Below are positions 12,191-51,617 of a DNA stretch of 64,000 bases, in pieces. The position numbers and the translations under genes were made by a program. Source of the stretch: Brachybacterium massiliense (GTDB lineage Bacteria; Actinomycetota; Actinomycetes; Actinomycetales; Dermabacteraceae); assembly GCF_900184245.1 (NCBI RefSeq), contig NZ_FXXB01000005.1, positions 186,001 through 250,000 on the forward strand, in the 5' to 3' direction. Below the pieces are notes generated by a model, which was given only the letters and a program-made list of their open reading frames with translations, ran no database searches and was not told the origin of the DNA. The stretch's first letter is position 1; every line of letters begins with the position of its first letter.

Positions 12191-12242
12191 GGCCTATGGT
12201 GAGGTGAACTGGCAATATTGCCAGTACACCTCACCATCGGCC
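12191..12242. repeat. 52-bp near-perfect palindrome
   Basis: The centre is the perfect 18-mer ACTGGCAATATTGCCAGT (12208-12225). It is flanked, after one A/A mismatch, by ATGGTGAGGTG and its exact complement CACCTCACCAT. After one more mismatch the sequence is closed by GGCC on both sides. Only two base pairs out of 26 fail. The outer arms (ATGGTnnGGTGnnCTGGC) resemble those of the repeats at 51.0 and 51.5 kb. It follows metQ and could terminate transcription, but it has no T-run on either strand. Confidence 0.85.
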
Positions 12243-16134: not shown

Positions 16135-16220
16135 GGTAGCGTGTCCGAGCGGCCGAAGGTGCATCACTCGAAATGATGTGTGGTTAATAGCCACCGCGGG
16201 TTCAAATCCCGCCGCTACCG
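16135..16220 (+). tRNA. tRNA-Ser (CGA anticodon)
   Basis: The 86-nt cloverleaf has an acceptor stem GGTAGCG/CGCTACC and an anticodon stem CATCA/TGATG around the loop CTCGAAA (anticodon CGA, reading UCG). It has the long variable arm typical of tRNA-Ser (GTGGTTAATAGCCAC) and a T-arm GCGGGTTCAAATCCCGC. The 3' CCA is not encoded. Confidence 0.97.
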
Positions 16221-50887: not shown

Positions 50888-50908
50888 GCCCTGGCCGGCC
50901 CCGCCCGG

Positions 50909-50983
50909 CCCGGTCCCGCCCGGCCTGGCTGCGCCCGGCCCCGTCCGGCCTGGCTGCGCCCGGTCCCGCCCGGCCTGGCTGCG
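50909..50983 (+). repeat. Three adjacent 25-bp GC-rich repeats
   Basis: Units 1 and 3 are identical (beginning CCCGGTCCCGCCCGGCCTGG and ending CTGCG); unit 2 differs at three positions. They directly abut the palindromic element that starts at 50983. Confidence 0.85.
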
Positions 50984-51062
50984 ATGGTTGGGTGCTGGCG
51001 TCACAGCGATCCGTACGGCGATATATCCGTACACATCGCGCAGGCGCCAGTACCTGACCATC
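50983..51062. repeat. Long palindromic element, copy 2
   Basis: Outer arms are GATGGTTGGGTGCTGGCG and CGCCAGTACCTGACCATC, pairing fully if G-U pairs are allowed. An inner hairpin has GCGAT/ATCGC and GTACGG/CCGTAC around the loop CGATATAT. Copy 3 at 51502 shares GGCGTCACAGCGAT, the inner stems and the right arm. Confidence 0.85.
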
Positions 51063-51100
51063 GACTGCATCGGGGCGGCCACCCGGCGGCCACCCGCGCG

Positions 51101-51106
51101 TAGGGT
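51101..51106 (+). promoter_or_regulatory. Putative leaderless -10 (TAGGGT)
   Basis: TAGGGT is followed by 6 nt and the ATG at 51113. The promoter layout is kept although the gene it serves is collapsed. Confidence 0.4.
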
Positions 51107-51112
51107 CGATGC

Positions 51113-51493
51113 ATGACCCTGCCCACCGCCGCCCCGCCCGCTGACGTGCGCCTCGCGCACTGCCTGCTCGATGCGCAGGGCACCGTCCTCTCCGCCCATG
51201 CGCCGGATCTGCCCTTCTACGCCGCGAGCACGATCAAGCTCCACGTGCTGCTGGCAGCGCTGCGCGCCGCCGACGAGGGCAGGCTCGATGTGATGGCCGA
51301 GGTGCCCGCCGCGTGCACCTTCCTGCGCGTGCTCGCCGTGATGACCGGCGGCCTCCCTCAGGACGAGGCGGATCCGCGGATCCAGGACCTGGTGCGCGAG
51401 CTGTGCGGGGACCTCGCCACCTGCGCCACGCTGCCGCGCGACCAACACGTCGGTGCCGGAGCGTGCGACAACCTCACCGGCCCGGAGGACTGA
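51113..51493 (+). pseudogene. Beta-lactamase-like serine hydrolase with its middle deleted
   Basis: The frame has 126 codons. The first 60 or so match class A beta-lactamase-like enzymes: LLDAQGTVLSAHAPDLPFYA, then the S-x-x-K motif S39-T-I-K42 and LLAALRAADEGRLDV. After about residue 65 it switches to TFLRVLAVMTGGLPQDEADP and ends VGAGACDNLTGPED, which reads like the far C-terminus of such a protein. The SDN and KTG regions and about 150 residues are missing. I infer an in-frame internal deletion, leaving an inactive product. Palindromic repeats stand on both sides. Confidence 0.7.
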
Positions 51494-51501
51494 CATGCCG
51501 G

Positions 51502-51577
51502 TGGTCAGGTGACGGCGTCACAGCGATGCGTACGGTCATATCGCCGTACTCATCGCCCCTGCGCCAGTACCCGACCA
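51502..51577. repeat. Long palindromic element, copy 3
   Basis: Outer arms are TGGTCAGGTGACGGCG and CGCCAGTACCCGACCA. Inner stems are GCGATG/CATCGC and GTACGG/CCGTAC around the loop TCATATCG, which matches the reverse complement of the copy-2 loop at 6 of 8 positions. It begins 8 nt past the collapsed gene. Confidence 0.85.
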
Positions 51578-51617
51578 TCAGCCGTGTGGGGGCGGGCAGC
51601 ATCCCCGATTCAGCCGG

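What the first reader, a model, noticed from the sequence alone, without database searches (positions are those of the whole stretch)
50983..51577. Pair of structured palindromic elements bracketing a collapsed gene
Two 76-80 bp elements about 500 bp apart in the same orientation share GGCGTCACAGCGAT, the inner stems GTACGG/CCGTAC and GCGAT/ATCGC, and the right arm CGCCAGTACC-GACCAT. The arms have drifted while keeping pairing, in copy 2 through G-U pairs, which suggests selection on an RNA or cruciform structure. Their 8-nt loops (CGATATAT and TCATATCG) match better when one is reversed. They flank a beta-lactamase-like gene that has lost its middle. This looks like an undescribed repeat family acting as a non-autonomous mobile element or recombination target.
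Basis: partly seen in the sequence, partly recalled or inferred. Interest (0 to 1): 0.8.

Follow-up and report, generated by a model that had tools for sequence, protein, structure and literature searches.

The report
Palindromes paired with a dedicated nuclease
Two 78-base DNA palindromes in this Brachybacterium window belong to a family scattered through the genome, and such palindromes also frame genes for one kind of nuclease that may be what copies them around, as REP repeats do with an unrelated enzyme.

Summary

The new finding is a likely partner: genes for MTES_1575/DUF559 (Vsr-like) nucleases, some with an AbiEi match, are bracketed by matching repeats. 34 of 47 Brachybacterium genes exceed all 115 genus controls; outside the genus 32 of 59 exceed the 99th percentile of 292 controls. 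Bracket repeats follow nuclease lineage rather than host genome. Three distinct palindrome families, one in another taxonomic family, have dispersed copies in genomes with the bracketed nuclease. RAYT/IS200 transposases were not found (0 of 38).

Best reading: a REPIN-RAYT-like system built on an unrelated nuclease. Mobilisation by the nuclease is inferred, not shown. Nine searches of an open-access library found no description.

The parts
50984..51061 (+). 78-bp palindromic element, copy 1
51501..51578 (+). 78-bp palindromic element, copy 2
   Evidence: 26 of 39 arm positions paired; fold z -6.7; R1 bits 89.1, E 2.9e-17 (the model was built with it)
51113..51493 (+). remnant of a PF13354 (beta-lactamase-like serine hydrolase) gene that lost its middle; lies between the two elements but is not judged part of the system
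   Evidence: PF13354 positions 14-52 of 214 only, against 14-214 in the G006 orthologue; alignment
50888..50983 (.). [not shown]
   Evidence: repeat family D1; alignment

Best explanation
The two elements are members of a dispersed family of 78-bp palindromes that depend on a trans-acting protein encoded elsewhere in the genome. The protein has a C-terminal Vsr-like nuclease domain (MTES_1575/DUF559) and an N-terminal part that in some members resembles AbiEi regulators. In this genome the gene is at G000:C4:74009-74977, about 111 kb before the window, and is itself bracketed by copies. As in REPIN-RAYT systems, each nuclease lineage sits mostly at a conserved locus, has its own cognate palindrome, and solo palindromes spread to intergenic sites, mainly behind genes. 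SHOWN: dispersal, fixed length and sharp ends, compensatory change across subfamilies, bracketing, matching of bracket and lineage, conserved acidic residues and a histidine, one locus without the copy. INFERRED: that the protein binds the palindrome (probably through the N-terminal part), cuts it in duplex or extruded form, and that repair or copying places it at new sites.
For: Bracketing: model hits at 14 of 30 nuclease loci, 12 on both sides; copies at L262, L264, L265 and L268 were in the model's seed, the other 10 loci (9 with both sides) were not. De novo palindromes on both sides of 14 of 47 nuclease genes (one side of L264 is poly-G) against 0 of 47, 0 of 69 and 0 of 297 control genes. 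Flank-to-flank repeats at 34 of 47 nuclease genes exceed the maximum of 115 genus controls; outside the genus 32 of 59 exceed the 99th percentile of 292 controls. Pairing: bracket repeats follow nuclease identity (Spearman 0.21, Mantel 0 of 2000); in 15 of 15 loci whose genome has a second bracketed nuclease the best cross-genome match beats the same-genome one. Dispersed sets where the bracketed nuclease lives: own family, G035 and G037 with about 15 and 16 sites and none in G018, G036, G041, G034, G020 of another family with about 15. Sharp 78-bp boundary. E180, D207, E217, D219 and H224 in 36 of 36 proteins; weak PDB profile matches to 3hrl (Endonuclease-Like Protein) and 3r3p (Mobile intron protein), E about 0.05. 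Y1 transposase in 0 of 38 genomes.
Against: No movement was observed; no base-exact empty site and no target duplication. G043 has many elements (54 matches) while its best nuclease relative is 54% identical and its two bracketed nucleases carry other repeats, so copies can exist without an evident cognate gene. 13 of 47 nuclease genes in the genus and 27 of 59 outside showed no clear bracket; 5 of the 34 genus passes are below 40 bits, and 9 of the 292 outside controls exceed the 32.8-bit genus limit. Dispersed copies are not always closest to their own genome's brackets: they are for G012, G014 and G040 (G043 nearly ties with G012, G046 ties for G034), but not for G004 (55.5 of 78, against 66.5 for G046) nor for this genome (51.9, against 57.6 for G034). 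The first 20 own-genome copies do not covary, so the family may be inactive here. The Mantel test does not separate specific pairing from joint descent, and the cross-genome comparison takes a maximum over more candidates.
Confidence: 0.6

Rival explanations
1. The protein is a regulator or nuclease-type toxin that controls itself through a flanking palindromic operator; dispersed palindromes are further operators or decoys (a regulon) that evolve with its specificity.
For: AbiEi-like matches (AbiEi_4 in 2 of 36; several AbiEi models of PADLOC in 1-5 of 36 each, weak). Palindromes fit dimeric binding, and arms change together across species. Some dispersed sites sit at the same intergenic position in different species with different arms (for example L255 and L185; that output was cut).
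Against: Copies avoid promoter regions: 52 convergent, 48 tandem, 9 divergent of 113, with 35 of 48 tandem copies nearer the 3' end of the upstream gene. A second copy lies downstream of the nuclease gene. A 78-bp site is very long for an operator (general knowledge).
Confidence: 0.2
2. The palindromes are transcription terminators or mRNA 3'-end stabilisers that multiplied or converged because convergent gene ends need them.
For: Excess between convergent genes (52 observed against about 18 expected by length from 77 background gaps) and very stable hairpins.
Against: Shared ends, ATAT centre and fixed 78-bp length are not needed for termination. Wobble pairs are not favoured (GT 46, AC 55). 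It does not explain bracketing of one gene family.
Confidence: 0.1
3. Ordinary REP or MITE elements moved by a RAYT/IS200 or a classical transposase.
For: Size, palindromy and intergenic dispersal resemble REPs, REPINs and ERIC.
Against: Y1_Tnp found in 0 of 38 genomes, while the same search rang in 5 of 14 named control genomes. No clear target-site duplication. Other transposase families were not surveyed.
Confidence: 0.07
4. A defence or self-recognition system in which the nuclease spares or is titrated by its palindromes.
For: Nuclease domain and weak hits to defence models.
Against: No direct evidence; defence neighbours were not looked for. Copy number varies widely between species.
Confidence: 0.03

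Closest known systems
REPIN-RAYT / REPtrons (PMC3116915, PMC8049555, PMC3733652; passages seen)
   Same: Dispersed extragenic palindromes with compensatory changes; a distinct nuclease gene, mostly at a conserved locus, flanked by its own repeat; several such pairs in one genus.
   Different: The enzyme is a Vsr-like MTES_1575/DUF559 protein, not a HUH tyrosine transposase; one 78-bp palindrome instead of two REPs. A GTAG tag was not tested.
EDxHD/Vsr-like homing endonucleases, such as the mobile-intron protein of PDB 3r3p (motif class recalled)
   Same: Weak profile match of the nuclease domain (E 0.052); conserved D, ExD and H.
   Different: No intron or intein was seen; the gene is framed by palindromes that also occur alone.
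ERIC and other MITEs (details recalled)
   Same: Fixed-size imperfect palindrome, intergenic, tens of copies.
   Different: A candidate dedicated protein is identified; no clear target-site duplication.
AbiE type IV toxin-antitoxin (recalled; two of three plasmid relatives are annotated 'type IV toxin-antitoxin system AbiEi family antitoxin')
   Same: Some members match AbiEi models.
   Different: Fused to a nuclease domain; an AbiEii partner was not searched for.

Membership tests
REP/REPIN-RAYT | HUH/Y1 transposase gene in the genome | tested here: not met
   PF01797 in 0 of 38 genus genomes
REP/REPIN-RAYT | repeat flanks the gene with which it is paired | tested here: met
   (for the nuclease gene, not a RAYT)
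REP/REPIN-RAYT | dispersed extragenic palindromes with compensatory changes | tested here: met
   not met within the first 20 own-genome copies, weak in 7 copies of G013
REP/REPIN-RAYT | vertical inheritance of the gene | tested here: inconclusive
   flank-sharing clusters of 19, 6, 4, 4, 3 and 3 of 47 loci, 8 loci alone; single linkage may chain the cluster of 19, and no gene tree was compared with a species tree
MITE of a DDE transposase | target-site duplication | tested here: not met
   at any tested boundary at most 1 of 111 copies with a repeat of 5-9 nt; excesses only at 2 nt (24 against 16.8; 20 against 12.0) and 4 nt (7 against 2.8), the inner ones probably due to the palindromic ends
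Vsr/EDxHD-type nuclease | conserved acidic residues and histidine of the fold | tested here: met
   36 of 36 aligned proteins keep E180, D207, E217, D219, H224; that these are catalytic is recalled
Vsr/EDxHD-type nuclease | three-dimensional fold | not tested
   the nuclease loci came from tools outside the structure tool's stated list; not sent
AbiE toxin-antitoxin | AbiEii toxin gene next to AbiEi | not tested
   no family search was made for AbiEii
Known RNA family | Rfam match at gathering score | tested here: not met
   only a tRNA at 16135-16220 in the window
Mobile element | observed movement | not testable with these tools
   [not shown]

The most novel reading that the evidence does not exclude
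A previously unrecognised class of bacterial mobile DNA: a nuclease of Vsr-like fold, often with an AbiEi-like N-terminal part, replicates its own cognate long palindrome through the genome. It would have arisen independently of REPIN-RAYT and be spread over many genera of one actinobacterial order.
Probability: 0.5. Interest if true: 0.9.

Novelty: new variant of a known kind. Interest (0 to 1): 0.77.

Why it matters
Short palindromic repeats are common, but a dedicated enzyme is known mainly for REPs (RAYT; general knowledge and the passages cited). A second, unrelated nuclease lineage with its own palindromes would show that such repeat-enzyme partnerships evolved more than once. It would give a testable role to MTES_1575/DUF559 proteins, now annotated as antitoxin-like or hypothetical, and offer several natural enzyme-palindrome pairs for asking how specificity evolves.

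Tried and rejected
Selection on RNA structure in the first 20 own-genome copies: no support. RAYT/IS200 partner: not found. Target-site duplication: none clear. Coding sequence: the family is open in one frame on both strands (11 and 9 of 111 copies with a stop, against 43-84 in the other frames), but column diversity by codon position in 20 copies is nearly flat (0.27, 0.29, 0.31), so coding was not adopted; the openness stays unexplained. Element-mediated damage of the beta-lactamase-like gene: both ends of the internal loss lie inside the gene. Orthologous ALDH loci held no element and did not share the neighbouring gene order. A screen for empty sites gave no base-exact case. Nuclease presence as such does not track elements: 35 of 38 genus genomes have a relative. 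Plasmid and phage collections: 3 and 1 records with relatives. Literature: searches listed no paper that describes nuclease-bracketing palindromes; the library is open-access PubMed Central only, most hits were seen as listings, and three papers as passages.

Rows dropped: partial hits spanning under about 50 model positions and three duplicate sites; one identical copy and two 77-nt copies before A2; of 47 nuclease genes, L269 and L278 (no start found) and L273, L277, L279, L281, L287, L299, L300, L302, L303 (partial, long or uncertain ends) before A6. Copies were cut as 78-mers from profile coordinates, so short end differences would not show.

Full report

THE FAMILY. A model of 20 own-genome copies finds 25 sites at E<=0.001 and 27 at E<=0.1 in this genome and has hits in 9 of 29 genomes of the relatives search, this one included, all of the same genus. 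A model of 82 copies has hits in 23 of 38 genus genomes, up to 61 matches in one genome counting both strands. Only the best 125-150 first-look candidates per genome were scored, so counts are lower bounds. I collected 113 copies, not all that exist: 111 fit the 78-nt model without a gap and two are 77 nt. Information content falls to background outside the 78 bp. The outer GTC...GAC, TGGCG and the ATAT centre are largely shared, while inner arms differ between species and stay complementary. The covariation score over 82 copies is 0.317 against 0.171 shuffled (0 of 500). Within genome G012 alone (11 copies) it is 0.271 against 0.153 (0 of 500); in 7 copies of G013 it is weak (17 of 500); in the first 20 own-genome copies there is none (157 of 500). 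By a permutation of arms, within-copy matching exceeds chance in G000 (26 copies), G012 and G014 (0 of 2000 each) and G043 (10 of 2000), is borderline in G003 (79), and is absent in G013 (190), G040 (674), G006 (1548), G004 (1669) and G034 (1999).

CONTEXT. With a crude codon-based gene caller, 52 of 113 copies lie between convergent genes, 48 between tandem and 9 between divergent genes, 1 inside a gene and 3 at contig edges; length-based expectation from 77 background gaps is 18, 62 and 29. Copies cluster: 6 adjacent own-genome pairs within 5 kb against 0.99 random (1 of 5000). Some sites are shared between species with different arms.

THE PARTNER. One recurrent locus (L176, L251, L245, L223, L189, L205) has elements at a gene whose product matches PF18741 REase_MTES_1575 below Pfam's cut-off (E 7e-6 to 7.5e-8 in four of the five products scanned, no match in the fifth, L245). 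Relatives occur in 35 of 38 genus genomes, 1-5 matches each, some being two pieces of one gene. Of the 30 best loci, 14 carry elements by the model, 12 of them on both sides; four of the 14 had copies in the model's seed. They include G008, where the genus search gave only 6 matches. Independently of the model, palindromes on both sides were found at 14 of 47 nuclease genes (one side of L264 is poly-G) and at 0 of 47, 0 of 69 and 0 of 297 control genes; repeats between the two flanks exceed all 115 genus control genes at 34 of 47. Best flank matches are direct in 21 and inverted in 13 of the 34. In all 15 loci whose genome has another bracketed nuclease, the same-genome brackets share at most 18.4 bits and the best cross-genome match is higher. 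This comparison favours the cross-genome side by number, so I rest more on the Mantel test (0 of 2000, though joint descent would give it too) and on the dispersed sets. A bracket palindrome of the G035 nuclease has about 15 sites in G035 and 16 in G037, two in each being the brackets, one in G017 away from its nuclease, one marginal in G031 and none in G018, G036, G041 or G034. In G020, of another family, the nuclease at 1876175-1876972 is framed by palindromes at 1875774 and 1877032, with about 13 further sites, the weakest 34 nt long; 6 of the 8 other genomes of its genus have shorter matches. Against a simple one-to-one picture, dispersed copies are closest to their own genome's brackets for G012, G014 and G040, tie for G034, and are not for G004 or this genome.

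ORDER LEVEL. The protein profile hits 71 of 198 genomes of the order, in 25 of 72 genera, own genus included, at E<=1e-20. I tested 59 genes outside the genus, taken from the higher-scoring matches. 32 exceed the 99th percentile (36.0 bits) of 292 control genes and 9 exceed the control maximum of 82.4; three controls exceed 38.3 and nine 32.8. By eye many of these repeats have complementary ends, but few are full palindromes (L331 is, 0.92).

THE PROTEIN. 36 aligned proteins keep E180, D207, E217-C-D219, H224 and D233-R-x-R-D237. All 36 match MTES_1575, 24 match DUF559 and 2 match AbiEi_4 at E<=0.01 (positions are shown only for the first member, so the N-terminal place of AbiEi_4 is inferred). 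Profile matches to PDB 3hrl and 3r3p are weak (E 0.049 and 0.052; the next hits, demethylases, are at 0.25-0.44). Nuclease loci mostly share flanks within lineages. In this genome the nuclease with its brackets is reversed relative to its neighbours in G004, G046, G012, G014, G040 and G034 (one flank matched, both flanks against L251), as recombination between the brackets would give.

INTERPRETATION. The pattern resembles what is reported for REPIN-RAYT: single-copy, distinct, vertically inherited genes paired with their own repeat, and hairpin repeats in extragenic space with compensatory changes (passages of PMC3116915 and PMC8049555). The enzyme is unrelated, and Y1 transposase was found in 0 of 38 genomes. 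I therefore say that it works like REPIN-RAYT but is not a member. That the nuclease moves the palindromes is inference from association. A regulon or operator reading is the main rival.

Noticed in passing
window 12196-12237: A shorter palindrome with similar ends (the 12.2-kb one), the most palindromic 78-bp place of the window; 3 sites in the genome, not among the 78-nt model's hits.
   Followed up: partly
L223/L268 (G000:C4:73806-75319): The own-genome nuclease with its bracketing palindromes is reversed relative to its neighbours in six related genomes, and there is a third copy on one side.
   Followed up: partly
all 78-nt copies collected: The frame starting at position 1 is open on both strands in about 90% of 111 copies across different arm sequences, unlike the other frames. 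It recalls ORF-compatible Rickettsia palindromic elements (recalled).
   Followed up: partly
L246:2064-2141 and 2288-2365: Two identical copies 224 bp apart with the same flank on one side: a recent local duplication.
   Followed up: no
L031 after position 1577: The element's terminal motif CCCGACCATC recurs as short half-copies next to the element.
   Followed up: no
L395 (MT839994.1 3257-4138): An unannotated 'Bacteriophage sp.' scaffold carries a 47% identical nuclease with a 37-nt flanking repeat nearly identical to that of L298.
   Followed up: partly
G043 (L255-L260): Near-perfect palindromes (up to 36 of 39 pairs) without an evident cognate nuclease among the matches found: lost gene or another partner.
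   Followed up: no
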